From Bolinopsis microptera (taxonomy: Eukaryota > Ctenophora > Tentaculata > Lobata > Bolinopsidae): a stretch of DNA of 64,000 nt. The stretch lies in contig NC_087073.1 of the NCBI RefSeq assembly GCF_026151205.1, forward strand, positions 1,700,001 to 1,764,000, written 5' to 3'. The notes beneath the pieces are model-generated. The model was not told the DNA's origin. It ran no database searches and worked only from the letters and a program-made list of their open reading frames with translations. A program made the position numbers and the translations under genes. Shown piece after piece: positions 15,925-64,000 of the stretch (position 1 is its first letter; each line of letters begins with the position of its first letter).

Positions 15925-17128
15925 ATGTCGCTGAATCATATTGAAGCACTGTCGGATGCCTTGGCTTCAGCTAAGGAGGGTGAACTGTCCGCTGCTGAGT
16001 TCCAGGTCATTGTTCTGCAGAGTCTTATCTCACTTAAGGTTAGATTTAAATTTAAAGTTTATTTTCTGTTTCTTATCTCACTCAAGGTTAGATTTAAATT
16101 TAATGTTTATTTTCTGTTTCTTATCTCACTCAGGGTAAGATTTAAATTTAATGTTTATTTTCTGTTTCTTATTTCACTCAAGGTTAGATTTAAATTTAAT
16201 GTTTATTTTCTGTTTCTTATCTCACTCAAGGTTAGATTTAAATTTAAAGTTTATTTTCTGTTTCTTATTTCACTCAAGGTTAGATTTAAATTTAAAGTTT
16301 ATTTTCTGTTTCTTATCTCACTCAAGGTTAGATTTAAATTTAAAGTTTATTTTCTGTTTCTTATCTCACTCAAGGTTAGATTTAAATTTAATGTTTATTT
16401 TCTGTTTCTTATCTCACTCAAGGTTAGATTTAAATTTAAAGTTTATTTTCTGTTTCTTATCTCACTCAAGGTTAGATTTAAATTTAAAGTTTATTTTCTG
16501 TTTCTTATCTCACTCAAGGTTAGATTTAAATTTAAAGTTTATTTTCTGTTTCTTATCTCCCTCAAGGTTAGATTTAAATTTAAAGTTTATTTTCTGTTTC
16601 TTATCTCACTCAAGGTAAGATTTAAATTTAAAGTTTATTTTTCTTATCTCACTCAAGGTTAGATTTAAATTTAAAGTTTATTTTCTGTTTATTATCTCAC
16701 TCAAGGTTAGATTTAAATTTAAAGTTTATTTTCTGTTTCTTATCTCAATCAAGGTTAGATTTAAATTTAAAGTTTATTTTCTGTTTCTTATCTCACTCAA
16801 GGTTAGATTTAAATTTAAAGTTTATTTTCTGTTTAGCTAAAAAAGTTATATTGTTTAATTCCACTTTCTAAATGTTTCAACAATTTCAATATTGAGAAAA
16901 CAAATGAGACGACCGTATGCAGATAAAATCATCAAACTATATGACCATAGTTACTGATTCAAGTCTCAAACAATATGCTGTGTTTAATTCCTTTTTAGTT
17001 TCTGTTTAATTCCTGTTTAATCCTAGTTTTCTCTTCAGGAGAGTCACGTGTCACTCAGATCCAGATTGTTTAACCTAGAGGGGAGGGGTTTTTTCAACGC
17101 CGGGGACGACGTTCCCTCTGTTTTAAAG
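15925..17128 (+). CDS. Gene A: unidentified protein, first two exons
   Basis: Exon 1 (15925-16038) starts at ATG and encodes 38 residues, beginning MSLNHIEALSDALASA and ending SLISLK at AAG|GTTAGA. Exon 2 (17039-17128) follows a pyrimidine-rich TTTTCTCTTCAG acceptor and encodes 30 residues (ESHVSLRSRLFNLEGRGFFN, then AGDDVPSVLK), ending at AAG|GTCAGT. Both exons are whole codons, so the join is phase 0 and open. Later exons were not found. I do not recognise the protein. The exon 1 donor is tandemly duplicated about 17 times inside the intron. The unit is 48 bp, so the frame stays open through most of the array, and some copies carry the better donor GGTAAGA. Use of a downstream donor would insert 16-residue repeats. 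The start is the first ATG in the open frame; an upstream exon is possible. Confidence 0.6.
16022..16834 (+). repeat. 48-bp donor-anchored minisatellite, about 17 copies
   Basis: The unit contains CTTATCTCACTCAAG|GTTAGA, then an AT-rich part ending TTTTCTGTTT. Copy 1 begins inside exon 1 of gene A (CTTATCTCACTTAAG), so exon end and 5' splice site are both amplified. Copies at about 16136 and 16615 read GGTAAGA instead of GGTTAGA, a closer match to U1. The unit is a multiple of three and stop-free in the coding frame. Confidence 0.93.
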
Positions 17129-17211
17129 GTCAGTAACATTTTTATACATACATGTTACCATAGTAACACTACCATATTACATGTTACATTTTTACAAAAC
17201 ATTTTTACAAC

Positions 17212-17384
17212 ACACATAACCCCGGCATGCGCAGGGATTATATTTCAATTTTTCCCGCGACGCGCGGGAAAAATTTATAATAATTTCGAGTGCGAAGCAC
17301 GAGGGATTATTATGAAAATAACCCCGACGTGCTTTAGCACGAGGGGTTATTTTAATATAACTTAAGCGTGCCGGTGTTATGTGT
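17212..17384. mobile_element. Small MITE with ACACATAACCCCGGCATGC ends
   Basis: Imperfect terminal repeats pair 17212-17230 with 17366-17384 (GCGTGCCGGTGTTATGTGT). Internal palindromes include CCCGCGACGCGCGGG and ATAACCCC/GGGGTTAT. The sequence just downstream (TATAAACCCCTCCGGGTTAG) recurs in reverse complement at about 50353-50373, so a related repeat lies there. No target-site duplication was resolved. Confidence 0.6.
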
Positions 17385-17748
17385 TATAAACCCCTCCGGG
17401 TTAGTGCTAGGACCAACAAATTTCATAATTCTAGCTATATGAGATCAGTATGGAAATATGAAATGGAATTGGGGAGTATATTATACTACCAAATAAATAC
17501 AACTAAGGTACTATGACATTTGAAATTGGCGTTATATCTAAACATTATTCCTCAGTCAGAACGTTGAATGAATATCGATAAGGGGCGTCGAGTTAAGCCT
17601 CGCCAGCGATAAAAGGTGGAGCTTATAATGATATCGTGTCATGGACATGAAGTTCATCAAAGTAGACGACTATAATATTTTCAATCATTTTTACTTTACA
17701 TTACGCATCAACATTTTTGCTCTCTAATCTTTTCACAAGTGCACTGAC

Positions 17749-18528
17749 TTGCTGATAAGAAACTGCTTGATTTTATCATGTCCGGCCGATAACAAACTGA
17801 ACTGGTCGCAACATATTTCTGCCATGAAAATGAAAATGGCCAGATACATTGGAGTCATGTACAAACTTAAAAAATATTTGCCTCTGGAAGCACGTTTACA
17901 AATATATCACAGCTTTGTGCAGTCTCACCTTAATTACTGCTCCCTCGTCTGGGGTTTTGCTGCCAAATCCCATATAGAAACACTATTTGTTAAACAGAAA
18001 ATGGGTCTTAGAGCAATACTACCAGGTTTTGTTAATTACTGGTACAAAGATGGTACACCACCAGCAAGTACCAAGTCTGGTTTCTATGTACACAAAATAT
18101 TGACAGTTCAAAGTATCATCGTGAAGAACGCATTAGTTTTTATACATAAGCTAAAAAACTTCCCAAGTCTAGTGCCTCCCTCTATAAAGAAAACAATACC
18201 TAACAGTGCACCAATATTTAACGTCGCCGATCCGGATTCGAGTCATACAACTTTATGGTCAGATGAATACGGTAAACACCCTTACAATAATTCAGTATTC
18301 TACAAAGGTCCACTATTAGCAATAAACAGATATAGTGACGCAGCAACTTCCTTGCCAAGTCTATTCAACCTTAACATCTACAAAAGGTGCATAAAAAACA
18401 TGCTCATTGATCAACAAAACGAGGGCATTGCAGACGAATGGCCTAACTTTATGTTATACAATATAACGGGACTAAGGAAATCAGAGCGCAACATCAACCG
18501 TAATGCTAATAATAACTCTGTCCCATAA
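17749..18528 (+). pseudogene. Truncated non-LTR retrotransposon reverse transcriptase C-terminus
   Basis: A 259-codon open frame carries motifs typical of the thumb and connection region just after the reverse transcriptase of CR1/jockey-type LINEs: DNKLNWSQHI, QIYHSFVQSHLNYCSLVWG and a following QKMGLRAI. The catalytic palm with its YADD-type motif is absent upstream, so this is a 5'-truncated insertion, as usual for LINEs. The open frame ends at TAA with no frameshift, which suggests it is fairly young. The first ATG is incidental. Confidence 0.75.
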
Positions 18529-21500
18529 GCACGCCATCACAGAATCAATTTCACTGCATACCATCTCAGTTACACTGCCATCAATTCGCCAGCAAAAACG
18601 GCATGACGCTATGCGACTGATAACAGTCGTTAAATTTTAAAAATTTTGGAATAGCTAGCTAGCAGTAGCTATGCGCCTGTTTCCACTCTAACAACTCTAA
18701 AAGCATATTAATATGATAATTTCAACTAAAGGCAACTTTATATGTGCTCAGCTATGTTTTGTTTCGACAAGCTCTATTATATACATTTTAATCGTTTTAA
18801 TGACCCACTGCGAGCTCTTCACTTGTGACGTCACATGCGCGTCTACTAAAACATTCTCGCGCGATACATTTTGATGACGAGTTATTTCCTTCTGTTTGTC
18901 ACAATTTCGGCCGCGCGCTGCACAACATTACCCGAAACCGCGCATCAAGTTATGAATTAATTCATATCGTTTAATAAATTAAAGATAACAGCTAATGAAT
19001 AAAATAGTCTAAACGCTTTTCAGGTTCAAATTATACTAAAATTCGAGTAAAATGTTGATTGTTTTGTGTCCCATTGAAAATACTATTTTGAAATTTAAAA
19101 TTATTGTAACTTTCTCACTGCTGAGCGGTGTTTAGCCTTTTGTTCCGCCATACCTCTATTTTTAATGTTGAATGTGTTTATAATTTTTGACAACTAAAGG
19201 CTTACTACCGAGGTCTTTAGGTAATAATTAACAAATACTGAATATCGAAGAGTTTATTTTTTATATTACTTTTCGACCCGCCAATAATCGTTTAAAAAAT
19301 AAAAACTGTTTATATATTATAAGGAATTTTGACCATTATATATTAACGTGGGTCATCGCCATTTTAAAAGTGTTTTAAATTGTAAATTAAAGTTACCTGG
19401 TTTAAAATTTTTTTGACATTCAAATGGTTCGATGGATCTCAATTTTAAATGCTTATTTTTCTTTCACATTTCAAGGTTTCAGGCAATTTCGGCAAGTAAA
19501 TATGAAGAAAAGCCTCACATATAATGCATTTTAATACATTACAATTTGTAAAACTTTTTATAATCAAAATCTTTTTATAATAATATCATAAGAAATCACT
19601 AACCATTTCTAAAAATTTTCTCAGTATACATTTAAAAAATTTACAAACAATAGATTTTCGCGCGCAAACATTTAAAGGTATTTTATGGTCGCATTTGGAA
19701 ATATTTTTACCCAAAAATACTGTTCGATAAAATTTATTAGCATTTTCAGTGAGAAGAAAGTTTTGAATTTAACAAGAGTAGCACATTTTGGTGGTGAAAA
19801 ACACTCTGACAATTGTCGTGTGCAGTGCGCGCGGTTAAAGGCATAACAGATCGAGCGCTACCATTAGCATAGCATTTCATTACACAAATGTGAGAGACCA
19901 TGTTCCGATAACCTTTCTGTTTTGTTCGTAATTTACTTTTGTCTCCCGTAATGTTATTTAAAGTAGCTATCTAACCATGTAATTTAACAGGTCTCATCAA
20001 TGTTTAATTTGATACAGCAGTTTTTTCATGGGATCTTGTTATCCTAACTATTTTGTTTTCCTACTCGTTTTTTACTTTCAGTATTGGTTTTCCGATTTGG
20101 AACTGCACAACTGACCACTTAACTCATCATCCAATGGAAGTGTAAACACATTTACCCACTACGGATAATTAATTTATGGTTCAAACATATTTATGGTTTA
20201 TGCACTATTTAACGTGTCCTAAGGGTACTCATTTTAGATAACAGTCATTTCAGTACCTCCGCCAAAAAAAAGTTGTGTTTAATATCTTGCTTGATATATA
20301 CATGCCTTTTTATCGCTCTACCCTTTATTATTTTCCTGAACTATTAATTCCGAACTATATATTTCAGCTTGTAAAGAGGATGTTATTGCCCACGTTAAGG
20401 GGCCTGTTAATAATTAACTAAATTATTAGATATTTTAGATTAGACAATAATAATAATATTATAACTTTACTATCACCACAAGAAGCTGACATGTTTATAG
20501 ATCCAGACTATGCTTAGAAAGAGTTGCCAAGATCACCCCAAAGATCTTCTAATCAAAGATGCTCTCACAGGATGCAGATGGTTTGTCTAGCGAGACTTAA
20601 TTTTGGATTATAACATATACAAGCTTTTCACATGATTTTGATTGGTACAATTATAGATAAGCGTAAATATAATGACAATCAAATTCAGCCTGAAACGAAA
20701 TGAATGAGAAAGAACGCCCTGTTCACCGAAACAACATTAATGAACTTGTCAACTATGCAGGTAACTGTGCTATTTTTACTATTTATTGACAATCTCTCAA
20801 TCGAACAAAAAATTCAATTTAACAATTATTTAAATGTCAATTGGGAGTCCTATGACTTAATGCACCTATTTAGAAGGTGAATAAATTATTGTTTGTGGTT
20901 TTTGATACAGCCTACTAAGGACATGTTTTTTAAATGACACTAAAATGACGTGTCCTGACACTTGACAGTGAAAGTGAAATGACTAGTAAGTAGAAAGTTT
21001 TGCACAGCAATGTTAACTGCTTTTGTTAGGAAAATCCTCTGCGCTTAGGAAAAACGCTTATCTTTGTCATCAGAACGGTCAGAATCATTGAAGGCAGGAC
21101 CTTTGCCAGATTCTCGAGTATTAACTAAGCCCTCTAAGATTTATATCTGCAACAGGAACAACTCGGTGGTTAGAATCTTAGATGATTGGTAATGCTGATA
21201 TTGACATAAAAAAGTTAGTAGCTCTTATGTTGGGTGCGGTGTGGCAGTCACAACAGCTCCATTAGTAGCACTCCAATATTATTATTTGTTTTGACCCTTA
21301 TATGAACGTAAATAAATGCTTAAACTAAGGCTAACATTCCCATGGATAAAGAAATAGACGCTTAAATTGCTCACAACCATTTAAATTGCTTAAAATTTAA
21401 ATGGTTGTTAACTTGGATATTTTGTGCAGTTGAGAAGTTATCCCGAAGTTAATTTCGTAAGCTTTTAAATTCTCCAATTAACTAAACCTTTAATTTAAAT

Positions 21501-22775
21501 TATCTTAACCGCAGGGTTTTAAAAGAAACAAGACGTAGAAATCTTTCAAGCGAAGATCAACTATGCTAAAATGAAGCACAAATCCAGTGTGGTGGAATTG
21601 GATCGTTTGAAGGAAAAATATCTTATGCCTGGTAATTATTATAATTGATAGCCAATTAAATCGATTTTTAATTCATATATGCACCTTCTTCGCTTTATCT
21701 GAATCTAGATCACTACATCTGGTCTCAGTGGTAAATTACCCTAATGTATTGTCTCAATAACGTTTATAATTTCGGACGAGAAATTTGGGGCAGTTTTTTG
21801 CTTGTACTGATTTTATCGAATTGTAACCACCAGACTTTACATCATGCCGTATGTACCTTGAAGAACTTATAGAAATCACGTATCTAAAAGAGAATGATGT
21901 AGAGGGGGATGATTAGTAGTTAGAAATCGGATCGCTGTAGCGGAAAAAAGCTAACCCTAGCAAAGAGTGATTTTATAACCAAATTCAGACAATTGTCTCG
22001 CCCATCTCCTGACATTTTAGGGTTCTTAACCCCTATCACCCATGAACCGGGTGCTTCCGGATTTATACCGAAACCCATATTGGAAGAAAACACCCGATCT
22101 ACAACTGCAAAGCACATTTTAATAACTTGAGCACAAAACTTGTTAAAAAAGACCAACAATTGTTCCCCAATTTGGTATTTTTCCTCACGCGTGCAACCAA
22201 AATGACCGATTTTTGTCAATATCTTAACGAATAAGCATTAAAAGGCTTATATTGCTTTATAAGTTGTATATAAATATGATGTTTGCGGTCATTTTAAGCT
22301 AGAATTCAAGTCTCTACGACCTTCCTAGTTCAAGTTACCAAAATTCAGTGCCATTTTTGGTTCGCTGAGCCAAAAAATAGTTTTTTGCCAATGTCTATAA
22401 AATGAAGCACTGGAGACCTTATGTTGCTTTATAACTTGTGTCCATTAGTACAAATGACCCTCTACCATACCAGATCGATTTCAAGTCAGTCAAGGCAATA
22501 GGCATAAATACGGCTACAAGGGCATGTTTCCAAATCGGACACAAATGTTTCCACGAGCTCAACTACTCTGACACCAAAATGGAAACATTGCCCAGAGCCC
22601 TTTCTGAACATGCTAGACCCACCAAACTTCTCAGGGACACTCGTGGTATCAATATAAATCGATCCCAATCGGTTTCAGTCCATTTTAGGCGATTCTAGGA
22701 GAATGTTCATTTTTTGTTCATTTCGTTCATTCTATGAACCATAGAAATATTTCACAGGAAGCTTAAAATGTTAGT
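18529..22775. other. Long AT-rich gene-free stretch
   Basis: No exon with coherent borders and no named repeat could be supported. A palindromic TGACGTCA-type CRE occurs at about 18826. Two short ORFs near 21920-22219 and 22438-22698 overlap on opposite strands without domains. The phrase CATGTTTCCAAATCGGACAC at about 22523 recurs at about 25636, so both are pieces of a dispersed repeat. Confidence 0.45.
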
Positions 22776-23173
22776 GGGGGGGAGCCAAGTGGATATTTGT
22801 AGATATTTGGATAATGTCATCCACTTTTTTCGTGAATTATCCATAATATCCATTGACAATAATCTACAAATATCTACATTTATCTACAAAAAATGTATAT
22901 CTCAAATATGTGCCCAGAAATTCTACTGAATTTTTGGAGATAGATGTATAAATTTGTAGAATTTGTAGAATTTTCGTGAATTATCCATTGACAATAATCT
23001 ACAAATATCTATATTTATCTACAAAAAATGTAATCTCAAATATGTGCCCAGAAATTCTACTGAATTTTTGGAGATAAATGTATAAATTTGTAGAATGTCA
23101 TCCACTTTTTTCGTGGATTATCCATTCTACATTAATCTACAAATATCTACAAATATCCACTTGGCTCCCCCCC
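22776..23173. mobile_element. 398-bp MITE with G-run termini and 7-bp TSD
   Basis: The terminal repeats start GGGGGGGAGCCAAGTGGATA and extend about 34 bp; the right end is the exact reverse complement. TGTTAGT flanks both sides (22769-22775 and 23174-23180). The interior is a tandem duplication of about 125 bp containing GTGCCCAGAAATTCTACTGA. It has no coding capacity, so it is non-autonomous. Confidence 0.9.
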
Positions 23174-23236
23174 TGTTAGTACTCAAGCCACTGTATCATA
23201 CCAGGGCAAATCCAACTCTGTTTACGGACATATACG

Positions 23237-25497: not shown

Positions 25498-26007
25498 CAA
25501 CGTCAAAAAAATTGTACCTTATTCTATTTTCAAATTTCCAAATCTTGGCAGGCTAGAAAAAGGTTTAAATATTATTCCTAGACACTTCAGAACCCTGTAA
25601 ATTTAGCCCTAACTAGGCAATCTGGGCCCCAAAAACATGTTTCCAAATCGGACACAAATGTTTCCACGAACACGGATTAATCTTCTGCGGCGAGCGCGAT
25701 CTGTTTATACTGATAAAACCCCTAAGTGTCAACAACTTTGAAAGATTTTTAGCGCCGCGCGGTAATACACGCATTTACAAATTTTTACCCCCCTTCCGTA
25801 ATCAACCGTTATCAAGACCCAACCCCCCCTCCTGACAGCAAAAGTACGTAATCATGGCCTGACCCCCCCCCCCCCCCCCCCCCCCCCCCTTGACTATTTT
25901 CCTAGAAAACACTTTATCTACGTTTCATGCTACCCTGATCATGCTATGATGATGAGCCGAAATCATTGTTATGATATCCGGCCAAGCAACTTCTAAACTA
26001 CTTACTA
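25498..26007. other. Gene-free stretch with a 29-bp C run
   Basis: Includes ACGTAATCA and AACCCCCC phrases at about 25795-25890 that match the interior of the Harbinger-type MITE at 51150. A matching right-hand piece lies at about 26811-26835, so a related element was probably split by the mariner-like insertion between them. Confidence 0.5.
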
Positions 26008-26684: not shown

Positions 26685-26959
26685 TATTATAGCCGGATAT
26701 TCGATCAATTTCTAAATTTTATCACTATCAGAGTGAAATTGAGTGGAATTTGAATTAAAATATTGTCAAATTGTTATTATTCTAGAGGGTAAAAAAGAAA
26801 ATGTTGATAACGTAATCAACGACCAAACCCCCCTCTATGTGTTATGATTCATGTTTGACTATTAATAATAATTATTTTCCTCAGGAGACGTACGTGCGAA
26901 AGACAAAATTTGCCTAGCTAAAGAAATTCTAGCTAAGAAAGCAGAGTTCAGAGCAGAAT

Positions 26960-35038: not shown

Positions 35039-35042
35039 CTCC

Positions 35043-35206: not shown

Positions 35207-35287
35207 CAAAGAGAAAGAGAGAACTCCTGGCTTCTGTACAGTCTATTTTCCATCCCAGGGCTCAAGTCACCTCCACCCTCCTTTATT

Positions 35288-37058: not shown

Positions 37059-37190
37059 CCTTCATTTTACCCCTTTCATCCCTTATCCCTAGGGCAACTG
37101 TCTCCTTTCATTGTCCACCCCTCCCCCATTTCCATTTCGATATCACCAGCCATATATATTCGAAATATTCATATTTACCCTTCTGTACTG

Positions 37191-37842: not shown

Positions 37843-39500
37843 TTACCCTTGGCCTTGTGGCTCCAAGTTAAGATCTAGACTGTTTATATTAACAATGTTT
37901 TTTCTCGCACCTCTGTCTCCACGAAGAGAAATCACTGTTGTTCTTAGGATTTCAAAGCGAAGGCGCTTTCTGATGTAACCTACAGCATCCGAGTACCTCT
38001 GGCCAGTGTGGTACTCCATCTTACTGGCCAGCTTTTTTACCAGTCTTTCAGCCTCACTACCCATTCCACCAGAAGTCGAGAACACTAAAGGTGTGAAGCT
38101 TCCTTTCTCCACTTCAAGAACCCTTGCGTTGTAACATCGCTTTTTCTCATTTTCATGGGACTGGTACATTGCTGGGATCGATTTGCTTGCATTGGAGGGG
38201 GCTGGGGCATGAAATACCCTTACATCAAAATATGCCCTCTCTGAAGCATTCCAAATCGATCTTGCAGAAATGTCCAGCCTAGCTTGGTCTCCAAGTACTG
38301 TTCCCTTAGGCAACTTCAGACCATCAACTGGAAGAAGAACTGGCTCAGTCTGCACATCCTTGCATTTCACAGTTCTCATTAGTTCAGCAAAGGTGTCTCT
38401 CAGCGAGTTGTGCCGCAGTGACACATATCCACCGAGTTTGCAGATGAGCGCATGGTTTGCTGAGTACTTTTGGCCACACGTACATGTCTTAGGGCTGTCC
38501 TTTAAGTTTAGGTTATATCTGAGTGCTATTGCGTCTGAGAACTGTTGTTTGTTCATCAGATATCCATACTCTTTCAAAGGTAGTGCTGTTAACCAAGCAC
38601 TTGCCCCTTTCTCAGCAGCTAGTTGGAACATCAACTTTGCCAGTGGTGTTGACTTGAGCTCCTGGCGTATTTCCGCTTGTTTTTGTCGATAGAAGAGATT
38701 TCGTTCAGTTGTTATCTCAGTTTTCACTCCTTTGCTTACTCTCCAGTCCTCTGTGTAGTTGTCTACCTGCTTGAGAATAGCTTCTTTAAGGGGTTTTGTG
38801 GCTCTACATGAGAATTTGTACTCTCGGTCTGCCATGTCCATCATAACTGGTATACCCAATCCTCCATATCTTGGTGGTAGAGCCATTATGTTCCTTAGTT
38901 CATCAGTGCAGCTAAACAGCCTGTTGATGATAGCTGGGATAAACTCATCGCGTGTTACTTGTTCCAGAGGAGTGAGCCTATCTGCAACTCCTGGGGTAGT
39001 TCTGCACACATAGTTCCATCTTTTACTAAGCCCATACATGTATGCACTGTATGCTATTTGAGGTTCTCTTGATGCTATATCACTTAATTGTTTAAGATCA
39101 CGACACCATTCTTGAACTTTTTCCTCGATGAAAGCCCCTTTTCCTTCATCAGTTCCGATAAAGCTGCCCATATATCGTCGACCAATACTTGTCACATTGA
39201 CATCTGGGAACAAGTTTCTTGCCTTCTCTTCGTGCTCAGGCTTGACTATCACCCATGTCTTGGAAGATTTAGGGTTGTAACCAAAAAGTGGTCCTTTAAT
39301 GCAGAGGTTATCCCACCACTTCCTCATTTCTTCCAGTTTTCCCCCAGCAGCAGAGTCATCAGCATACCAGATCTGAGTCACTTTTCTCTCAATGTTTCCT
39401 GCATCAATCAATGGTATTGTACCACATGCATAAAATCCCATAGCAGGTGGATCACCTTGTGTTGTCCCTTCTTCACTAAAACATTTTATAATTCTGCAAA
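37843..39500 (-). pseudogene. RLE-type non-LTR retrotransposon, 5'-truncated ORF
   Basis: A long open frame (532 codons from the first ATG, extending upstream through EEGTTQGDPPAM, a reverse transcriptase fingers/palm motif) carries WYADDSAAGG, the catalytic YADD. Further on come a zinc-knuckle-like CTCGQKYSANHALIC (C-x-C-x7-H-x3-C) and RLDISARS...YFDVRVFHAPAP, the layout of the restriction-like endonuclease that follows the reverse transcriptase in R2/CRE/NeSL-group LINEs. The stop is at 37843. The N-terminal DNA-binding region and earlier reverse transcriptase motifs are missing; the frame is lost upstream of about 39500. The remaining part has no internal stop over about 1.6 kb, so the insertion is recent. 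Confidence 0.85.
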
Positions 39501-41598
39501 TACATGTGAAGAGAAGGACTCAGCATCGCATGTCATATTTTTTCTGGCGCTGGTAAAGTAATGTACAAAATTATGACATAACATCATCACAAATATCTCC
39601 AAAATGTCAAAAACTCTATATAATAGAAAAAATAATAATACTGGTGGTTACAAGACGAACAATTTTGTACATATATAAATGACCGGAAACCCTACTAAAC
39701 ATATGCATAGAAACACTAGTGCATGGTTTCAGGACATAACATTGTTGTGCCTGATATAGGAGAAACACATTTTTGTTGAGTGTAGAAAGTCAGGAAACAG
39801 CGATTAATTGATATATAATATCAAAAAACATATTATATATGTTCAAAACCATACGTGCTATTTTGTAGCCAAAGGAGCTAATTTCCTTATGAGAACCGCA
39901 TTCCAAGCTTGTGCAATTTCATTTAGCTACACACAATTTATAGTCTTACTTCAAAGCTGTAGCTGTTTGGCCGACGTCCGTCATCCAACCAAACATCATC
40001 CACCAATACATATGAAAGTAAGAAATTAGTCCAAATACATGCAAACGTCGCTCAAGGGGCATTGAACAACAAAGCACCACTTTTTATATTAGCAAATGGT
40101 GTTTTTTCACCATGAAGTAAAGTAATAAATCTGCTAAGTCAATTTTGAAGAAATTCGACAAATGTTGTCAAAGCGTTCGATTTTTATAGTTCGAGGTAAA
40201 ACGTCTTTAAATGCGCGGCTCAATTTTTTTTCTTCCTTAATTTTGTTCAGTACCAGTTTTTGATGTAACAAATCTACATGAATTTTTGAAAGATTGAAAT
40301 ACATATTTAAACACATGTTTTTTGTTTTAAGTTTATGTATTTGGTGTAAACATTTTTTCCTTTATATTTTTCAATTTAAACAATTTTTAATAATGCATTT
40401 TTTACATTTTGAACATTAGATATATTTTTAAAATCTTTTATAATCAAAATTCAATATTAGATTAAAGTTCATTTTGTAGCGCGATGCACTACTGGGTCGC
40501 GCCGCGCATCAAATAATTCTTCTCGCAACCTTAGGTAGATCGGCAAACTGCACCTTTGTGCCTCACCAAGCGGCGAAGGTTTGACATCGAGATAAGAATC
40601 AAAGTTCATTTAAAGTTTTTAATTCAAGTTTTCAACCGAAGTTTTCAATTAAAGTTTTCAATTAAAGTTTTCAATTAAAGTTTCATTTAAATATAATAAA
40701 CTTAACAGCCACGCTGAAAATACATAAAAGCGAAAATCAGAGGCGCGCCGCGCACATTCGCTCCATCATATATCCTAATTCAAAAATCGAGCGCTTACTC
40801 AAAATTTCTCAGATTTGCACATTAGTGAGTTAGTAGCTTACTGAAGTTACTGCATGACGACAAACGATTCTACGGTGTCGTTTTCTTGATAAATGCAAAT
40901 CAAACAATATTTGCACAAATTTCAAGTATCGCTGCTCAATCTGCCATCTATTGCTGTTTCCTGAGGTTTTGATATATTTTTCATAATAGCATAAATAAAA
41001 CTCAAGAAAACAACAATTTTTTCAAGAAAACAACAATTTTATTTAGTATCAGTTAAAGCAGACAAAAACATATTTTATGAATATAACTAGCGCAAACTTT
41101 AGACCATATATCTTCTAAAGGGGACTTGGAGTAGCAAGAGAGTGACCAGAAAGTATATATACTTTTACCAAAAATACGTCGAAATGAATCCAGGGTGATA
41201 CAGGATCTGAGAGTGCAGACCATAAAGTTTACGCACCCACCCTTGCCTCCTGAATTCTTGGTTAGATAGACAATTATGCAAAATTGGTCGTTTATACTCC
41301 AAGTCCCTTTGTTAATAGAAGTAGTATTATTTATGTCTGGAGTTAGCTTCATTCAATAATAAAAATATCAATATAATCAATATTAATATCAATATCAGAC
41401 TAAACTATCAAATAAATAAATTATCAAATATCAATTATTAATTCACTCTGATTAAAAGTTATAAATTAGGATATCTAATATTTAAGAATTTCAACTACAA
41501 GTGGTCGAAAACGCCCAAAATCGATCTGAGATATTTTCAGCGAAAGACTCTGTTGGGTATGTGCACCCAACGGAATTTTGAAAGATTAAATTGCAGGT
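39501..41598. other. Gene-free AT-rich stretch
   Basis: Holds a short GTTTTCAATTAAA repeat (about 40628-40681), ACAACAATTTTTTCAAGAAA repeats near 41008-41040, and ATCAATATTAAT runs near 41360-41440. Small ORFs (for example 41053-41352 minus) have no domains. Confidence 0.45.
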
Positions 41599-51575: not shown

Positions 51576-51578
51576 TAA

Positions 51579-54979: not shown

Positions 54980-55022
54980 ACATGATATTATATTGTAATA
55001 CACCTCAATATCCCAGGAGAAT

Positions 55023-58000
55023 ATGACTCTACAGAAGAGTTCATCAAATAACGGGGTGGACGACAACAGCCGGGCTCTAGCTGCCGAGATCAGGTTTGTT
55101 CTGCCGAGATCAGATTTGTTTAAATTTCCAGAACAACTATAACCAAACTGCTGCAAATCTGCCTCAAGGGAATCGTTAAAGCTTATCTACCATTGAAACA
55201 AACTTCAAACGATCTCTATTCACAGGAAAGCACAGGACCCCTTCAATTTCGAGTCAGTGCGACTGTTCCAGCGAGTGTTCGACAGCGAGTGCCTGGACGA
55301 TGAGCGAGTGCTGACATTTAACGCTGCTGTTGCACTCCTCACCAAGCTGGACTTCAAGTTTTACGGAGACGCCAAGTACCCGCTGTCTCATTACCTCCGG
55401 GAAATTGTGGGATCATGTGCTACTGTTACCTTCCCTAACTTCGTTCAGGTAAACATGTGCTACTGTTACCTTCCCTAACTTTGTTCAGGTAAACATGTGC
55501 TACTGTTACCTTCCCTAACTTCGTTCAGGTAAACATGTGCTACTGTTACCTTCCCTAACTTCGTTCAGGTAAACATGTGCTACTGTTACCTTCCCTAACT
55601 TCGTTCAGGTAAACATATGTTAATGTTACCTTCCCTAACTTTGTTCAGGTAAACATGTGCTACTGTTACCTTCCCTAACTTCGTTCAGGTAAACATGTGC
55701 TACTGTTACCTTCCCTAACTTCGTTCAGGTAAACATGTGCTACTGTTACCTTCCCTAACTTCGTTCAGGTAAACATGTGCTACTGTTACCTTCCCTAACT
55801 TCGTTCAGGTAAACATGTGCTACTGTTACCTTCCCTAACTTCGTTCAGGTAAACATGTGCTACTGTTACCTTCCCTAACTTCGTTCAGGTAAACATATAC
55901 AACTGTTACCTTCCCTAACTTCGTTCAGGTAAACATGTGCTACTGTTACCTTCCCTAACTTCGTTCAGGTAAACATATACAACTGTTACCTTCCCTAACT
56001 TCGTTCAGGTAAACATGTACAACTGTTACCTTCCCTAACTTTGTTCAGGTAAACATGTGCTACTGTTACCTTCCCTAACTTTGTTCAGGTAAACATGTAC
56101 AACTGTTACCTTCCCTAACTTCGTTCAGGTAAACATGTACAACTGTTACCTTCCCTAACTTCGTTCAGGTAAACATGTGCTACTGTTACCTTCCCTAACT
56201 TTGTTCAGGTAAACATGTGCTACTGTTACCTTCCCTAACTTTGTTCAGGTAAACATGTACTACTGTTACCTTCCCTAACTTCGTTCAGGTAAACATGTGC
56301 TACTGTTACCTTCCCTAACTTCGTTCAGGTAAACATGTGCTACTGTTACCTTCCCTAACTTTGTTCAGGTAAACATGTACTACTGTTACCTTCCCTAACT
56401 TCGTTCAGGTAAACATATACAACTGTTACCTTCCCTAACTTCGTTCAGGTAAACATGTACTACTGTTACCTTCCCTAACTTCGTTCAGGTAAACATATAC
56501 AACTGTTACCTTCCCTAACTTTGTTCAGGTAAACATGTGCAACTGTTACCTTCCCTAACTTTGTTCAGGTAAACATGTATTACTGTTACCTTCCCTAACT
56601 TTGTTCAGGTAAACATGTACAACTGTTACCTTCCCTAACTTCGTTCAGGTAAACATATGCGCATGTGAACGTAAACATCATTGTGGTTGTACTGAGTAAT
56701 ATGACTCTGCTAAATAATAATATGACTATGCTAAATAATAATATGAGTATGACTATGCTAGATAATAATATGACTAATGACTATGCTAGATAATAATATG
56801 ACTAATGACTATGCTAGATAATAATATGACTATGCTAGATAATAATATGACTAATGACTATGCTAGATAATAATATGACTAATGACTATGCTAGATAATA
56901 ATATGACTATGCTAGATAATAATATGACTATGCTAGATAATAATATGACTAATGACTATGCTAGATAATAATATGACTATGCTAGATAATAATATGACTA
57001 ATGACTATGCTAGATAATAATATGACTATGCTAGATAATAATATGACTAATGACTATGCTAGATAATAATATGACTAATGACTATGCTAGATAATAATAT
57101 GACTAATGACTATGCTAGATAATAATATGACTATGCTAGATAATAATATGACTAATGACTATGCTAGATAATAATATGACTATGCTAGATAATAATATGA
57201 CTAATGACTATGCTAGCTAATAATATGACTAATGACTATGCTAGATAATAATATGACTAATGACTATGCTAGATAATAATATGACTAATGACTATGCAAG
57301 ATAATAATATGACTAATGACTATGCTAAATAATAATATGACTAATGACTATGCTAGATAATAATATGACTAATGACTATGCTAGATAATAATATGACTAA
57401 TGACTATGCTAGATAATAATATGATTAATGACTAGGCTAGATAATAATATGACTAATGACTATGCTAGATAATAATATGACTAATGACTATGCTAGATAA
57501 TAATATGACTAATGACTATGCTAGATAATAATATGACTGATGACTATGCTAGATAATAATATGACTAATGACTATGCTAGATAATAATATGACTAATGAC
57601 TATGCTAGATAATAATATGACTATGCTAGATAATAATATGACTAATGACTATGCTAGATAATAATATGACTGATGACTATGCTAGATAATAATATGACTA
57701 ATGACTATGCTAGATAATAATATGACTAATGACTATGCTAGATAATAATATGACTATGCTAGATAATAATATGACTAATGACTATGCTAAATAATAATAT
57801 GACTAATGACTATGCTAGATAATAATATGACTAATGACTATGCTAGATAACAATATGACTAATGACTATGCTAGATAATAATATGACTAATGACTATGCT
57901 AGTTAATAATATGACTAATGACCATGCAAGATAATAATATGACTAATGACTATGCTAGATAATAATATGACTAATGACTATGCTAGATAATAATATGGCT

Positions 58001-58569
58001 AATGACTATGCTAGATAATAATATGACTAAGTACCTTCCATCAGGCTGTATCAATTTCAATAAGTAAACCAATCCCTCTCGGTTACAAAGAAGGATTTGA
58101 AGACATGGATTTGGATCACAATGGAAAGCTTGATGCCAAAGAAGTCTTCAATATGATGAAAAAGGTAAGCAGGTCTTGGAAAGCAGATTTTATTGTGTTG
58201 TACGAAATTTGTCAAATGAAGCTTGTTGTTTTGGCAATATTATGAATATGCGTTTATCTAGAGATAATATTTATAATAATTATAATATTAAGATAATATT
58301 TATTATTGTTTAGTCCTGTGCCCTGACCAAGAAGTTAAATTGCCTGTTTCTCCGGGCCAGCTACTCATTATTAACGGCTTGGTGAACCCCGGTAGTTTCA
58401 CGTTTACGTAACCATGGTGACAAAACATATTTACCAGATATCGGACAGCTGTTACTCGTGGGCAGATGTGGAGGATTTCCTAGAGAGTACAGACATGGAC
58501 CACGATGGCAAGATGGACTACGCGGAAATGCTCAAAGCTTTCTACTTTTCCCAGACAATTTCTTTCTGA
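55023..58569 (+). CDS. Small EF-hand calcium-binding protein, four exons
   Basis: Exons 55023-55093, 55226-55448, 58045-58164 and 58438-58569 give 181 residues. The N-terminal half (exons 1-2) is helical with no intact calcium loop. Two canonical EF loops follow: DLDHNGKLDAKE at about 120-131 (exon 3) and DMDHDGKMDYAE at about 157-168 (exon 4), each with acidic positions 1, 3, 9 and 12 and Gly at 6. It ends FSQTISF. The layout suggests a cytosolic calcium sensor or buffer with degenerate first hands; the exact family is not recognised. The start is the first ATG after an in-frame TAA; TCCCAG just before it could instead be an acceptor, making this an internal exon. Intron 2 (2.6 kb) consists mostly of two tandem arrays, one starting inside exon 2. 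Confidence 0.88.
55081..55120 (+). repeat. Two-copy duplication across the exon 1 donor
   Basis: CTGCCGAGATCAGGTTTGTT (55081-55100) is followed immediately by CTGCCGAGATCAGATTTGTT. The first copy spans the exon 1 end and its GT donor; in the second the donor GT has become AT, leaving only the first usable. Confidence 0.92.
55414..56657 (+). repeat. 40-bp donor-anchored minisatellite, about 31 copies
   Basis: The unit contains CATGTGCTACTGTTACCTTC, then CCTAACTTCGTTCAG|GTAAA. Copy 1 starts inside exon 2 of the EF-hand gene, so each unit repeats 35 bp of coding sequence and the CAG|GTAAA donor. Copies differ only at TTCGTT/TTTGTT and TGC/TAC/ATAC-type positions. The unit is not a multiple of three and reads into TAA in the coding frame. 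Confidence 0.97.
56690..58030 (+). repeat. 27/18-bp array beside the exon 3 acceptor
   Basis: Units ATATGACTAATGACTATGCT plus AGATAAT (27 bp) alternate with an 18-bp form lacking ACTAATG-type sequence. It ends 15 bp before the exon 3 acceptor. GACTAATGAC in each unit resembles a branch point. Confidence 0.95.
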
Positions 58570-59552
58570 GCCACGGACGAGCTAATGACAGTGTGATTTT
58601 AGCGTGTGAACAGTACAGTGCAGGTGACTTGGCAGATTGCCATGCCAGGTGACTTGTCCTACTTGACGTATAAGTACAGGGCACATTGCCAAGAGAATAG
58701 TTATTCAAAGACACGGTCAAAGGGGGCGCTGCAATTCAGTGAATTATACTTTTGGACAAAACTTGAAATTATTGACCTAAATATTTTTGGGAAGTGAAAC
58801 ATTTTTTAGAAGTATGGCTTGGAAAGCTGTAGAGATATCAACTTGCTGGTTGCTAAGAGTCGTTATGGTGGTTACTAAGGGTCGTTATGGCGATATTGAT
58901 TGAGTACAATATGCTCTTAAATATGTTACCTCCAAGTCTCTGCTGAATATACATTTATTTTCTTTTACATTTGAATTTTGTGTTTTGAAACGCTGAGTTC
59001 TATGGTCTCACTTTTATTAAATATAATGTAACTTATCAGTCTAATTTAGTAGGCACTAAAATCTCTTCTATGGTTGCAATGAAAATTCGAAGAAATTCCG
59101 GTTGCCCTTTTTCGAATATGAAAATGTGTGCTGACCTAAAGTTTTGCAGTTATTCGTTCTAACGCGGGGTCATTAATATTTTCAAATACTTTAGCCAGAT
59201 GAGTTCTATAATCTTGGTTGCCCCACTAAACGAACTTGGTCTATGAAAACAGAAAACTCATAAAGTACTGTTTGAACAATTTCAAATAAGTTCAGAATAA
59301 CAAAACAAAGATTTCTAGAAATATCAAGTCATTAGTCGTGTAGGAGCAACAGTAACATTTTAGTCATTTTACTTTCACTATTTCAGTAATGAAAGAATTT
59401 TCAGTCTTTGAAAAAATATCAGCTAAAATCTATTAATATAGAGAATTGGTACAATACTTTTGTAAAACTGTACAAGTTACAAGTAAAGTTATTTTAAAGC
59501 GCTTTTACGAAATTAACACCGTTTGTAAAACAGGGTTTGTTTACGTCTAAAC
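58570..59552. other. Intergenic space between convergent genes
   Basis: Downstream of the EF-hand stop and upstream (in plus coordinates) of the coiled-coil gene's 3' end. It has two GGTTACTAAGGGTCGTTATG-like lines (58848-58890) and is otherwise AT-rich without exons. AATATAATG-type signals are too weak to call a poly(A) site. Confidence 0.45.
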
Positions 59553-59985
59553 AGTTATCATAGTAACCACTGCAGACCGGCTGTAACCATAGTTACCTCT
59601 GCAGACCGGCTGTAACCATAGTAACCACTGCAGGCCAGCTGTAACCATAGTAACCACTGCAGATCGGCTGTAACCATAGTAACCACTGCAGATCGGCTGT
59701 AACCATAGTAACCACTGCAGACCGGCTGTAACCATAGTAACCACTGCAGGCCAGCTGTAACCATAGTAACCACTGCAGATCGGCTGTAACCATAGTAACC
59801 ACTGCAGATCGGCTGTAACCATAGTTACCTCTGCAGACCGGCTGTAACCATAGTAACCACTGCAGACCGGCTGTTACCATAGTAACCACTGCAGGCCAGC
59901 TGTTACCATAGTAACCACTGCAGATCGGCTGTAACCATAGTAACCACTGCAGATCGGCTGTAACCATAGTTACCTCTGTGGGATC
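59553..59985. repeat. 29-bp array carrying X-box-like GTAACCATAGTAAC
   Basis: About 15 units of AACCATAGTAACCACTGCAG followed by ACCGGCTGT. It ends 10 bp from the stop codon of the coiled-coil gene, in what should be its 3' untranslated region. Single diverged copies occur in that gene's intron (60186-60205 and 60374-60416). Confidence 0.95.
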
Positions 59986-59994
59986 TGGCCGCTA

Positions 59995-60569
59995 CTATTT
60001 CACAATCTTAGTAGTACTAAGATTGTGAAACATGGCCATGAGTTTTGAGTACTTCTCAATCTCCTCCTTTTGCTTGGTGACCTCGCTGTTCAGTGCTTCT
60101 ATGGCTTTCTCTTTTTCAACTACCTTACAACCCTGCATCTTCTCCTGAGAATTATCATGAAATTAGAAACTGCGGACAAATGGGTACACTGCAGACCGAC
60201 TGTTAGAGGACTATTGCTCCTAATTCATATTTATCGAAAATGCGTAAATGTTTTGATAAATTTGACATTTGACTTCAAGTTTTCAATTTCACATGAAATA
60301 TTGTCAAACACTAATACATAATAATAATTTAAGACAAGAAATAGATTGGGCTGAAAAGATTGAATCCAATAAATGTGGACCGGGTGTAACCATAGTAACC
60401 ACTGCAAACTGGCTGTGTGTAAACTGTACCTTCTCTACGAGCTCCTTGTACTTTGAGTCAATTTTGGAAAATTCTGATTTAGCTTTAGAAAGCTGAGAGT
60501 CCAAATCAATCTTCTCTTTATCTTTCTTCCTGTTTTTCTCCTCTGATTGTCGTAGCGATTGTTTTGTCT
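59995..60569 (-). CDS. C-terminal two exons of a coiled-coil protein
   Basis: Exon 60569-60430 (acceptor TTTCAG, donor AAG|GTACAG) and terminal exon 60144-59995 join in phase 0. They encode about 95 residues of Lys/Glu-rich heptad sequence (for example KIDLDSQLSKAKSEFSKIDS and NSEVTKQKEEIEKYSKLM), ending MFHNLSTTKIVK and TAG. This is a long coiled coil with no other domain. Upstream exons should lie beyond 60569 but were not found. The last 33 coding bases, including the end of the reading frame, form a perfect palindrome. The gene converges on the EF-hand gene and diverges from the Ig-domain gene. The family is not identified. Confidence 0.8.
59998..60030. repeat. Perfect 16-bp-arm palindrome at the coiled-coil stop
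   Basis: TTTCACAATCTTAGTA, one G, then TACTAAGATTGTGAAA. It covers the last codons of the gene on the minus strand and would form a strong hairpin in the transcript. Confidence 0.93.
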
Positions 60570-61533
60570 CTGAAACACACATATTTAGATCGTCTTACTA
60601 CAGTAAAACATTTCATTTCCCCTAATAGGACTTAACATACATACGTTGAACAAACAAAACCCCGATTTACCGCAATCCCCGATTTACCCCCAAAACTCAG
60701 AGGTTATTCGGGGTTTTACTGTACCATAGCTGCTATCTTGCTGTGTTGTGTGGGCTCAAGTGTCTACAGCGAAGTTGGGGAGTAGTTATCTTTAATCATT
60801 AAGTTAGAACGAAAGTAATTTATCTTTCAGACAGGACCGAGATGGTAGCATCTTAATGTAAAATATAATTTCATCAGAGCTCAAAAAGGGGGAATCTAGT
60901 GGTTACTAGGTGGTAACTAGGTGGTAACTAGGTGGTAACTAGGTGGTAACTAGGTAGTTCCCCGTATATCAGAGCTCAAAAAGGAGGAATCTAGGAAATT
61001 AAAGAATGGCGGTCATTTCCAAATTTACCTTCAAGTGATAGTTAAGCCACCTGTAACAGTGTTACAGTGTTAACAAGGTAACTCTGCTCTGCAGACTAGT
61101 TTGCAGTGATTAGATTGCTGTGATTGCATCGCTTACAACGTAGTAGTAGTAGTTACAACTCGCAAGGAACAAATATAGTGATTCATATTTGAAAAACCAA
61201 CAACAGAAATACCAGAAACTGTGAGTCAATATTAGATGAATTCAAATATTAGAGAAGTATAGCCTGACAAAAGATCAATTTTTTTGGAAAGAGATACCGA
61301 TTGAAAATAACACGGGAATAGTTTTAATAAATATCAGAATCAATTCTGCAGTGATTATATCATTCAACTGTTGCAAGCCTGAACTAACGTTAAATGTTTT
61401 TTCGAAGAAACACAAACTGCCCGAATAACATTGAAACATCTATGATTGAGTTCAGAAAATGAATTAAATTTAAACTACGTTAAAAACTGCGACTAACAAA
61501 AGGGCTCGATGAAACGGCCAGATTATTTACAAG
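60570..61533. other. Space between divergent genes
   Basis: Contains five GGTGGTAACTA units (60908-60955), a repeated AGAGCTCAAAAAGG(G/A)GGAATCTAG phrase (60877 and 60970) and a GTAGTAGTAGT run (61141). A minus-strand donor-like AAG|GTAAAT at about 61030 follows only 22 bp of possible exon, too little to call. Confidence 0.4.
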
Positions 61534-64000
61534 ATGAGCTTTCTTTGGTTGATTGTTTGTTTGTCTCCCGTATTGTTTGCGGAGGGCCAATTGTACGGTA
61601 ACATTTACACGTGCGACCTACAATACGTTAAGCCTGGCTCCGACTTTCAGATACCTTGCAAATCAGATTATGCAGCAGCTACCAGGGTATGTAATAGTAA
61701 GTAGTGTCCACAGCTACCAGGGTATGTAATAGTAAGTAGTGTCCACAGCTACCAGGGTATGTAATAGTAAGTAGTGTCCACAGCTACCAGGGTATGTTAT
61801 AGTAAGTAGTGTCCACAGCTACCAGGGTATGTAATAGTAAGTAGTGTCCACAGCTACCAGGGTATGTAATAGTAAGTAGTGTCCACAGCTACCAGGGTAT
61901 GTAATAGTAAGTAGTGTCCACAGCTACCAGGGTATGTAATAGTAAGTAGTGTCCACAGCTACCAGGGTATGTAATAGTAAGTAGTGTCCTCAGCTACCAG
62001 GGTATGTAATAGTAAGTAGTGTACACAGCTACCAGGGTATGTAATAGTAAGTAGTGTCCACAGCTACCAGGGTATGTAATAGTAGTGTCCACAGCTACCA
62101 GGGTATGTAATAGTAAGTAGTGTCCACAGCTACCAGGGTATGTAATAGTAAGTAGTGTCCACAGCTACCAGGGTATGTAATAGTAAGTAGTGTCCACAGC
62201 TACCAGGGTATGTAATAGTAAGTAGTGTCCACAGCTACCAGGGTATGTAATAGTAAGTAGTGTACACAGCTACCAGGGTATGTAATAGTAAGTAGTGTCC
62301 ACAGCTACCAGGGTATGTAATAGTAAGTAGTGTCCACAGCTACCAGGGTATGTAATAGTAAGTAGTGTCCACAGCTACCAGGGTATGTAATAGTAAGTAG
62401 TGTCCACAGCTACCAGGGTATGTAATAGTAAGTAGTGTCCACAGCTACCAGGGTATGTAATAGTAAGTAGTGTCCTCAGCTACCAGGGTATGTAATAGTA
62501 AGTAGTGTCCACAGCTACCAGGGTATGTAATAGTAAGTAGTGTCCACAGCTACCAGGGTATGTAATAGTAAGTAGTGTCCACAGCTACCAGGGTATGTAA
62601 TAGTAAGTAGTGTCCACAGCTACCAGGGTATGTAATAGTAAGTAGTGTCCACAGCTACCAGGGTATGTAATAGTAAGTAGTGTCCACAGCTACCAGGGTA
62701 TGTAATAGTAAGTAGTGTCCACAGCTACCAGGGTATGTAATAGTAAGTAGTGTCCACAGCTACCAGGGTATGTAATAGTAAGTAGTGTCCACAGCTACCA
62801 GGGTATGTAATAGTTAGTAGTGTCCACAGCTACCAGGGTATGTAATAGTAAGTAGTGTCCACAGCTACCAGGGTATGTAATAGTAAGTAGTGTCCACAGC
62901 TACCAGGGTATGTAATAGTAAGTAGTGTCCACAGCTACCAGGGTATGTAATAGTAAGTAGTGTCCACACTCCACAGCTACCAGGGTATTTCCCGTGTTTC
63001 AAATTCATGAAGAATATTCCTGATTGTCATAAAGTGATAATTAGCAAGTGACTGATAATTAACAAGTGACTGATAACTAACAAGTGACTGATAATCAACA
63101 AGTGACTGATAATCAACAAGTGACTGGTAATCAACAAGTGACTGATAACTAACAATGTCTCAGATCTACCAGCCCGGCGAAGCAGTGCCCTCGGATGAAC
63201 AGCTAGCTGCTGATTCCTTGTTCAAATCACGTGCTGAAAGAACTACAACTATAAACGAGTATGAAGACGCAACTAAAGGGGTGGATGACGGTTTCTACAC
63301 GTGTGTTATCCAGCACGGTCCTCGCCATGAACTACTTTACTCTCTAGATACCTGTCAGGTGATCATAGTGGACCTGTGTGAGGACTCCGGGTGCGGAGAC
63401 AAGGAGATCTGTGAACCTGACTACAGTACAGGAACTGTGGAATGTACCTGTGATTATAAGTGCCCCTTTGCTTTTGATGCCCTCTGTACTGATACGTGTG
63501 AGGTGTTCTGGCATGAATGTGCTATGGAAGAGAGGGTGTGTGAGGATGGGAAGGATAGGCAGATCGCTCATCGGGGGTTCTGTGCAAATCGAGTGGAGCC
63601 AACAATCAGGGACATTGACCAGGAAATTGAAGCAGAGTTAGGCGAGTTTGTTACATTAGCGTCCGGACTGATAAAAGACGGAACACCCATGGCAACAGTT
63701 CACTGGGTATTCTACCCTGACAATGGAGAACCCTCTTACTTGTCTGTAAGGGAGAATTACAGGTTCCAAGTGACTGAGGACTCGGTGGGGACCTACAGAA
63801 TCACCCTGACTCACTGCATGAACACGGAGACCGCTGTTCGTAACGAGTATAGGTTTGGAATCAAGAGAGTGACAACCTCTCCTCCAGTGGACACCACCTC
63901 CCCCACACCTGCCTATGATCTGCCTGGACAACTGAAGGCAGGAGGACCACCTGGTTACACTTGTAGTGCTTTCTCCGGCGGAGTCCTGGAAGACTTCAAC
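61534..64000 (+). CDS. Secreted Ig plus follistatin/Kazal-like domain protein, 5' part
   Basis: Exon 1 (61534-61686, 51 residues) encodes a signal peptide (MSFLWLIVCLSPVLFA) and the first strands of an Ig-like domain with GSDFQIPCKS. Exon 2 (63151 or shortly after, acceptor ATGTCTCAG with exon at about 63160) stays open to the window end. It completes the Ig domain with DDGFYTCVI, then has a Cys-rich follistatin/Kazal-like module (DLCEDSGCGDKEICEPD to HRGFC), a second Ig-like segment (VHWVFYP to YRITLTHCMN), a Thr/Pro linker (VTTSPPVDTTSPTPAYD) and the start of another Cys-containing domain. The two halves of the Ig disulphide lie on different exons, which independently supports the splice in phase 0. 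The role is likely extracellular adhesion or matrix. Intron 1 consists almost wholly of a donor-anchored array. It runs off the window. Confidence 0.85.
61674..62990 (+). repeat. 35-bp donor-anchored minisatellite, about 37 copies
   Basis: The unit contains CAGCTACCAGG|GTATGTAA, then TAGTAAGTAGTGTCCA. Copy 1 starts inside exon 1 of the Ig gene. Each unit has the native GTATGT donor, a second perfect-consensus GTAAGT and an acceptor-like TGTCCACAG. It is nearly invariant (occasional TCCT or GTACAC). Not a multiple of three; the coding frame meets TAG within the first unit. Confidence 0.97.
63033..63155 (+). repeat. 18-bp array beside the Ig exon 2 acceptor
   Basis: About seven units of AACAAGTGACTGATAATC. 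The last reads CTGATAACTAACAATGTCTCAG, where ACTAAC is a good branch-point match a few bases from the acceptor. Confidence 0.9.

What the first reader, a model, noticed from the sequence alone, without database searches (positions are those of the whole stretch)
15925..62990. Minisatellites seeded on 5' splice sites in three unrelated genes
Three of the largest arrays (16022, 55414, 61674) each begin inside the last coding bases of an exon and repeat exon end plus GT donor. Units are 48, 40 and 35 bp, with no shared sequence except that each straddles a donor. Chance placement of three arrays on exact exon borders is unlikely, so the donor region may promote tandem duplication (for example through R-loops or replication slippage at U1-bound sites) or its expansion may be tolerated or selected. 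From memory, exon-intron-boundary minisatellites have been reported in amphioxus; whether this is the same class is unverified.
Basis: partly seen in the sequence, partly recalled or inferred. Interest (0 to 1): 0.88.

Follow-up and report, generated by a model that had tools for sequence, protein, structure and literature searches.

The report
Tandem repeats grown on splice donors
In what is very probably a comb-jelly genome, short DNA blocks that straddle the point where a gene's coding piece ends and its intron begins have been copied in tandem dozens of times, a pattern known from some amphioxus genes, and such repeats appear to favour these exon-end signals.

Summary
Three minisatellites (48 bp x 17, 40 bp x 31, 35 bp x 37) each begin 11-35 bases before the end of a coding exon and repeat exon end plus 5' splice site. 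In all three genes a later exon continues in the same phase. The genome is very probably the ctenophore Bolinopsis microptera. In 240 kb sampled elsewhere, at least 2 of 21 filtered arrays sit on donors that homology supports: GMP synthase and a papain-like protease. A further array found by motif search lies at a Sushi-like exon end. Genome-wide, four donor 9-mers occur in tandem triplets more often than eight permuted words (mean 370 versus 22 matches). Counted as distinct arrays the excess is about 3.6-fold (worst case 2.1-fold), and an acceptor 9-mer shows no excess. These are 'mirages', the exon-intron-boundary minisatellites of amphioxus. Most likely, microhomology-mediated duplications across donors expanded as minisatellites do and are tolerated because the first donor still abuts the intact exon. 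Why donors are favoured is open: tolerance alone does not explain an excess over controls, and selection on the donor copies is not shown.

The parts
15925..16038 (+). coding exon 1 of gene A (MSLNHIEALSDALASAKEGELSAAEFQVIVLQSLISLK), ending in AAG|GTTAG
   Evidence: ORF and donor read from sequence; kept at 112 of 114 bases in the paralogue L002
16023..16834 (+). minisatellite 1, 48 bp x 17.0, unit = 16 exon + 32 intron bases, one donor per unit
   Evidence: TRF; unit table
17039..17128 (+). exon 2 of gene A (ESHVSLRSRLFNLEGRGFFNAGDDVPSVLK), phase 0 as required
   Evidence: read by eye; paralogue compared
55226..55448 (+). coding exon of gene B (EF-hand protein), ending ...FPNFVQ|GTAAAC
55414..56660 (+). 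minisatellite 2, 40 bp x 31.2, unit = 35 exon + 5 intron bases
   Evidence: TRF; unit table
58045..58164 (+). next exon of gene B (AVSISISKPIPLGYKEGFEDMDLDHNGKLDAKEVFNMMKK), phase 0
   Evidence: joined protein hits Pfam EF-hand_1, E 1e-8, downstream of the junction
61534..61686 (+). exon 1 of gene C (signal-peptide-like start by eye, first part of an Ig-like domain), ending ...AAATR|GTATGT
61676..62968 (+). minisatellite 3, 35 bp x 37.1, unit = 11 exon + 24 intron bases
   Evidence: TRF; unit table
63164..63999 (+). next exon of gene C (IYQPGEAV...DDGFYTCVIQ...), phase 0, open to the window end
   Evidence: weak Pfam ig match across the junction, E 0.031, below the cut-off

Best explanation
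These are exon-intron-boundary minisatellites ('mirages') at 5' splice sites of ordinary protein-coding genes in a ctenophore, very probably Bolinopsis microptera. Step 1, inferred: a short tandem duplication arises across a donor between brief direct repeats, one in the exon end and one just inside the intron. Step 2, partly shown: the duplicate expands and homogenises as other minisatellites do; paralogous copies carry about 17 and 12 units. Step 3, inferred from anatomy: the gene tolerates it because the first donor still abuts the complete exon, so splicing from donor 1 to the distant true acceptor removes the whole array; using a later donor would insert exon copies, in 4 of 6 cases with a stop or frameshift. 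Step 4, shown statistically, cause unknown: arrays form or persist at donor words more often than at control words, and not at an acceptor word.
For: Gene structure: 5 of 5 arrays with both exons visible join in a matching phase (window arrays 1-3; L028 and L017, read). The GMP synthase exons align with human GMP synthase 2vxo with no gap at the junction GVQ|GD. The L017 exons match Peptidase_C1 only when joined, E 1.6e-4; neither half alone does. A sixth array, C1:428573, ends a Sushi-like exon, E 0.002, slightly below Pfam's cut-off. Genome-wide triplets: AAGGTAAGT 479 versus 1 reversed, CAGGTAAGT 450 versus 0, GAGGTAAGT 371 versus 5, AAGGTGAGT 181 versus 36; 32 distinct arrays in 466 motif-Mb against 10 in 529 for two fully listed permuted 9-mers, ratio 3.6, P 1e-4. 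Acceptor TTTTTCAGG: 4 arrays in the whole genome despite a higher background (8, against 3 for the four donor 9-mers together, in 304 kb). Seeds: short repeats at both array edges, one exact and two with a mismatch, in 3 of the 5 arrays inspected. Instability: 812 versus 579 bp in paralogues.
Against: Unit-level donor score shows no clear enrichment over shuffles across 37 arrays. Exon partners were picked by eye, partly by phase, so the phase agreement is not fully independent. Only 1 of the 32 motif-found arrays had its flank read; the rest are presumed, not shown, to be at exon ends, and for three of the four motifs no letters were shown, so some may be copies of one another. The five donors in the sample carry none of the four tested 9-mers. 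Control words vary widely (0 to 6 arrays where known; AAGGTGAGT's own reverse has 36 matches). Arrays 1 and 3 show no clear microhomology. No transcript data. Units of array 1 and of GMP synthase are in frame without stops, so use of later donors is not excluded there.
Confidence: 0.6

Rival explanations
1. Pure tolerance: tandem duplications fall at random in genes; those inside exons or over acceptors are purged, those over donors or inside introns survive. No donor-specific process exists.
For: Explains why the arrays spare the exon and why acceptor arrays are fewer. Unit-level shuffles show no clear excess.
Against: Survival cannot raise donors above freely tolerated intronic and intergenic sequence, yet donor 9-mers exceed permuted 9-mers in arrays although they are no commoner in the 304-kb sample (3 for four donor motifs versus 14 for eight controls). 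If arrays form mostly in genes, part of the excess could still come from that.
Confidence: 0.22
2. Self-removing duplicates: because a donor core reads AG|GT, a repeat unit is a potential GT...AG micro-intron, so units reaching the mRNA by use of a late donor can be spliced out again. Donor-containing duplications therefore survive where others are purged, as in the Rogers/Hellsten model of intron gain.
For: 5 of the 6 units read (arrays 1 and 2, GMP synthase, Sushi, L017; not array 3) run exactly GT...AG; arrays 1 and 2 also have a pyrimidine-rich stretch before that AG, and array 2 a CTAAC. PMC4974935 (abstract and passages) cites multiple 24-bp AGGT duplications lying within an intron in fission yeast.
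Against: Units of 32-54 bp are short for introns; by eye the AG sites in array 3, GMP synthase and Sushi lack a pyrimidine tract. Unique intron sequence and a separate acceptor follow the array in the genes where this was read, so these are not introns made wholly from exon.
Confidence: 0.2
3. Selection for many donors, for example to load U1 snRNP on the intron and strengthen splicing or block early polyadenylation.
For: Donor columns vary in 3 of 45 against 23 of 186 elsewhere, in the expected direction.
Against: Not significant (P 0.28); array lengths differ between paralogues.
Confidence: 0.08
4. Donor-targeted mutation: transcription-linked R-loops or stalled forks at donors promote duplication.
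For: Donor-specific excess over the acceptor word and controls.
Against: No direct evidence; R-loop and fork data were not available.
Confidence: 0.2

Closest known systems
Amphioxus 'mirages' (Adh3; globins BflGb6 and BflGb9; PGBD5; troponin C)
   Same: Tandem repeats that span an exon-intron boundary, many with repeated AG/GT signals, variable between haplotypes, and reported not to disturb regular splicing (abstract and passages of PMC3087553; one passage of PMC3902484). Adh3 units are given as 10-72 bp, like the 32-54 bp here.
   Different: Different phylum (ctenophore by inference); the window arrays reach 31-37 units; an acceptor 9-mer shows no excess here, while amphioxus has both 5' and 3' boundary cases; splicing was looked at by RT-PCR there and not here.
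Intron gain by tandem duplication of AGGT (Rogers model; Hellsten 2011 ATP2A1; fission yeast SPOG_01682)
   Same: Tandem duplication that includes AG|GT; units are potential GT...AG introns (abstract and passages of PMC4974935; the primary papers were not read).
   Different: Here the donor appears pre-existing: a unique intron tail and a separate acceptor follow the array, and the GMP synthase exons join with no gap at the junction against the human protein.

Membership tests
Mirages (exon-intron-boundary minisatellites) | tandem repeat unit contains both exon and intron sequence across a boundary | tested here: met
   Exon/intron bases per unit 16/32, 35/5, 11/24 in the window; also in L028 and L017 and in C1:428573
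Mirages (exon-intron-boundary minisatellites) | splice signals repeated in the copies | tested here: met
   3 of 45 donor columns vary in 5 arrays tabulated
Mirages (exon-intron-boundary minisatellites) | copy number unstable | tested here: met
   812 versus 579 bp (about 17 versus 12 units) in two paralogues; alleles or somatic variation not testable
Mirages (exon-intron-boundary minisatellites) | mRNA spliced normally despite the extra sites | not testable with these tools
   No RNA data; reading frames fit use of the first donor
Intron gain by AGGT duplication | intron consists of duplicated exon, flanked directly by exon on both sides | tested here: not met
   Unique intron tail and separate acceptor after the array in the three window genes and in L028
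Bolinopsis microptera genome | 265 Mb, 13 chromosomes, largest 26.2 Mb (Table 1 of PMC11797021, passage) | tested here: met
   264,652,675 bases; C1 26,206,493; C1-C13 are 15.2-26.2 Mb, then C14 198,114, C15 167,500, C16 124,311; the table gives 346 scaffolds, here 232 contigs

The most novel reading that the evidence does not exclude
Donor sites are a genuine hotspot for birth of minisatellites in ctenophores, through a process acting on splice donors themselves (co-transcriptional, or because AG|GT units can splice themselves out), so that hundreds of genes carry hypervariable donor arrays and the lineage has a standing source of new introns and splice variants.
Probability: 0.3. Interest if true: 0.85.

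Novelty: new member of a known kind. Interest (0 to 1): 0.6.

Why it matters
In the papers seen here, mirages are described gene by gene in amphioxus. Finding them in what is very probably a ctenophore, with a genome-wide excess at donor words over permuted words and over an acceptor word, suggests either independent origin in two distant animal lineages or a general animal process, and makes the link between tandem duplication, splicing and intron gain directly testable with ctenophore RNA-seq and genomes.

Tried and rejected
1) Donor PWM (textbook frequencies, recalled) of the unit against dinucleotide shuffles: no clear enrichment among 37 arrays. Short units keep AG-GG-GT dinucleotides when shuffled, so the test is weak; it is still reported as negative. 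2) CAGGTAAG 8-mer triplets, 1080 versus 12: not used for array counts, because one 6-kb array fills the listed places. One search covered the reversed word, which one search already counted, and added only the places of those 12. 3) Selection on donor columns: not significant. 4) A PDB search with the L017 exon alone gave only hits to designed repeat proteins (SAKe), which I take as spurious; replaced by the joined Pfam test. 5) L020 6601 (AAGGTAAGG in the unit) has no convincing open frame upstream and is not counted; L009 5690 (third copy GAG|GTAAAG after a short ATG frame) is a possible further case, not counted; window 30345 and 42880 gave no clear exon model. 6) Acceptor 8-mer TTTTCAGG, 362 versus 91, was only partly listed and its words are common (30 versus 12 in 304 kb), so the fully listed 9-mer was used. 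7) One AAGGTGAGT place, C1:4182788, was merged with the neighbouring C1:4181600 array before counting, giving 10 and not 11; two blocks at C2:21866316-21873721 were counted as one. 8) Array counts come from the first listed places (about 100) per donor motif, so per-genome figures are extrapolations. C1:36576 and C1:761375 share a 32-bp step and could be copies of one array. Six of the eight control words are known only as match counts; taking each match as its own array still leaves a ratio of 2.1.
Full report
What is there. TRF on the window gives arrays at 16023-16834 (48 bp x 17.0, 95% matches), 55414-56660 (40 bp x 31.2) and 61676-62968 (35 bp x 37.1). Read against the sequence, each array starts inside an open coding exon and each unit carries that exon's end plus the donor: AAG|GTTAGA, CAG|GTAAAC and AGG|GTATGT. 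Units hold 16, 35 and 11 exon bases. In each gene a later exon with a plausible acceptor continues the frame in the same phase (17039, 58045, 63164); these exons were picked by eye. Gene B is an EF-hand protein (Pfam EF-hand_1 E 1e-8; the match lies downstream of the junction). Gene C looks like an Ig-domain protein (PF00047 E 0.031, across the junction, under the Pfam cut-off). Gene A has no Pfam match up to E 1.

Where it is from. The window lies at C2:1700001-1764000 of a 264,652,675-base genome in 232 contigs. C1 is 26,206,493 bases; C1-C13 are 15.2-26.2 Mb and C14-C16, the next read, 124-198 kb. Table 1 of PMC11797021 (passages seen) gives Bolinopsis microptera 265 Mb, 13 chromosomes, largest chromosome 26.2 Mb and 346 scaffolds. 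The match in size makes this ctenophore the very probable source; no tool named it.

Not confined to the window. Twenty-four 10-kb stretches from C1-C8 were fetched. With the window, 304 kb hold 37 arrays after filtering (period 20 or more, 2.8 copies or more, 85% matches or more, overlaps removed): 16 in the window, 21 outside. Two of the 21 lie on donors that can be checked by homology. L028 2292-2887 (54 bp x 11) ends an exon of GMP synthase; the joined exons align with human GMP synthase with no gap at the junction GVQ|GD (one two-residue gap lies further on), and match Pfam PF00958 across it at E 5.3e-6, 26.8 bits against a cut-off of 27. L017 9782-9916, minus strand (32 bp x 4.2), ends an exon of a papain-like protease: neither exon alone matches Pfam, and joined in phase they match PF00112 at E 1.6e-4, above the cut-off, across the junction. 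Of the 37, five are thus placed on donors; the other 32 were not all assigned to exons or introns, so acceptor or further donor cases among them are not excluded. A further array, C1:428573-430927 (54 bp), came from a donor-motif search and ends an exon with a Sushi-like match, E 0.002, below the cut-off; its downstream exon was not read.

Genome-wide test. I searched the whole genome for three exact copies of a 9-mer with 15-45 bases between them. Both strands, against the same word read backwards: AAGGTAAGT 479 versus 1, CAGGTAAGT 450 versus 0, GAGGTAAGT 371 versus 5, AAGGTGAGT 181 versus 36. Two permuted words: AGATAGTGA 62, its reverse 17; GATCAGTAG 53, its reverse 0. Acceptor word TTTTTCAGG: 31, its reverse 9. 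Donor mean 370 per motif, permuted mean 21.75 over eight words. Matches overcount long arrays, so I counted distinct arrays in the listed places: donors 5, 9, 8 and 10, or 32 arrays in 466 motif-Mb; fully listed controls 6 and 4 in 529 motif-Mb; acceptor 4 in 265. Ratios are 3.6 against the permuted words (P 1e-4), 4.5 against the acceptor (P 7e-4), and 2.1 in the worst case where each match of the six count-only control words is its own array (P 6.5e-4). Background does not explain this: in 304 kb the four donor words occur 3 times in all, the eight control words 14 times, the acceptor word 8 times. The P values treat arrays as independent; control words differ among themselves; for CAGGTAAGT, GAGGTAAGT and AAGGTGAGT no letters were shown, so arrays were told apart by place only. 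The size of the effect is therefore rough. The five donors of the 304-kb sample carry none of the four words, so the two lines of evidence meet only in the Sushi array.

Tests that did not favour the finding. Donor score of the unit against dinucleotide-preserving shuffles showed 19 versus 14.6 at threshold 5, 9 versus 11 at 6 and 7 versus 7.1 at 7. Variable columns within five arrays: 3 of 45 in the donor, 23 of 186 elsewhere; random 9-column windows do as well in 28% of draws. So nothing shows that donors in the copies are kept by selection.

Anatomy and mechanism. Of the 5 arrays whose two edges were inspected, three show short repeats flanking the donor, one in the exon and one in the intron: ATTTTCT in L017 (exact), CATRTGC in array 2 and ATYCTA in GMP synthase (one mismatch each); arrays 1 and 3 do not clearly. 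That fits slippage or microhomology-mediated duplication as the seed. Gene A has an inverted paralogue about 173 kb away with exon 1 at 112 of 114 identical bases and the same array at 579 in place of 812 bp; 9 of its 10 full-length units are identical. Copy number thus differs while the flanks are close, and copies look homogenised. If a second donor were used, array 2, array 3, the Sushi array and L017 meet a stop or frameshift; array 1 and GMP synthase units are in frame and open. The simplest reading is that donor 1 is used and the array is spliced out with the intron. This is inferred; RNA is needed.

Known relatives. [quoted passage not shown] Adh3 and RT-PCR data were taken to suggest regular splicing. 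PMC3902484 (one passage) adds PGBD5 and troponin C. The original Adh paper (PMC117041) is not held and was not read. The present arrays meet the defining features that could be tested. Paper searches (listed of found: 20 of 346, 14 of 14, 15 of 459, 2 of 2, 4 of 4, 12 of 15, 12 of 56) listed amphioxus papers, the AGGT intron-gain paper PMC4974935 (passages) and one ctenophore genome paper, PMC11797021, in whose main text the words satellite and intron do not occur. I saw no title or abstract start describing such arrays in ctenophores, but the lists were capped and the library lacks most subscription papers. I therefore call this a new member of a known kind, in a new host phylum as far as these searches show, with a rough genome-wide measure of donor preference.

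Noticed in passing
window 13627-17130 and G000:C2:1541474-1544773 (L002): Inverted segmental duplicate of gene A with its array about 173 kb away on the same chromosome; a flanking array of the 22-bp TTACATGGTAGCGTTACCATAG type is present beside both (seen by eye).
   Followed up: partly
window 5198-5311: Internal array of about 19 CCCTAA telomere-type repeats.
   Followed up: no
window 522-2395: 31-bp array of 60.6 copies that leaves long open frames (643, 634 and 636 aa) in three frames of the minus strand.
   Followed up: no
G000:C1:6658097-6664165: Array of at least 6 kb with two CAGGTAAG donors per unit of about 57 bp, spaced about 41 and 16 bases.
   Followed up: no
window 37843-39519 (-): 558-aa open frame with a reverse-transcriptase-like YADD, perhaps a retroelement remnant; judged by eye only.
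   Followed up: no
window 16023-16662: Array 1 is open in the exon's frame through about 13 units, so retention would add repeated 16-residue blocks to the protein.
   Followed up: partly
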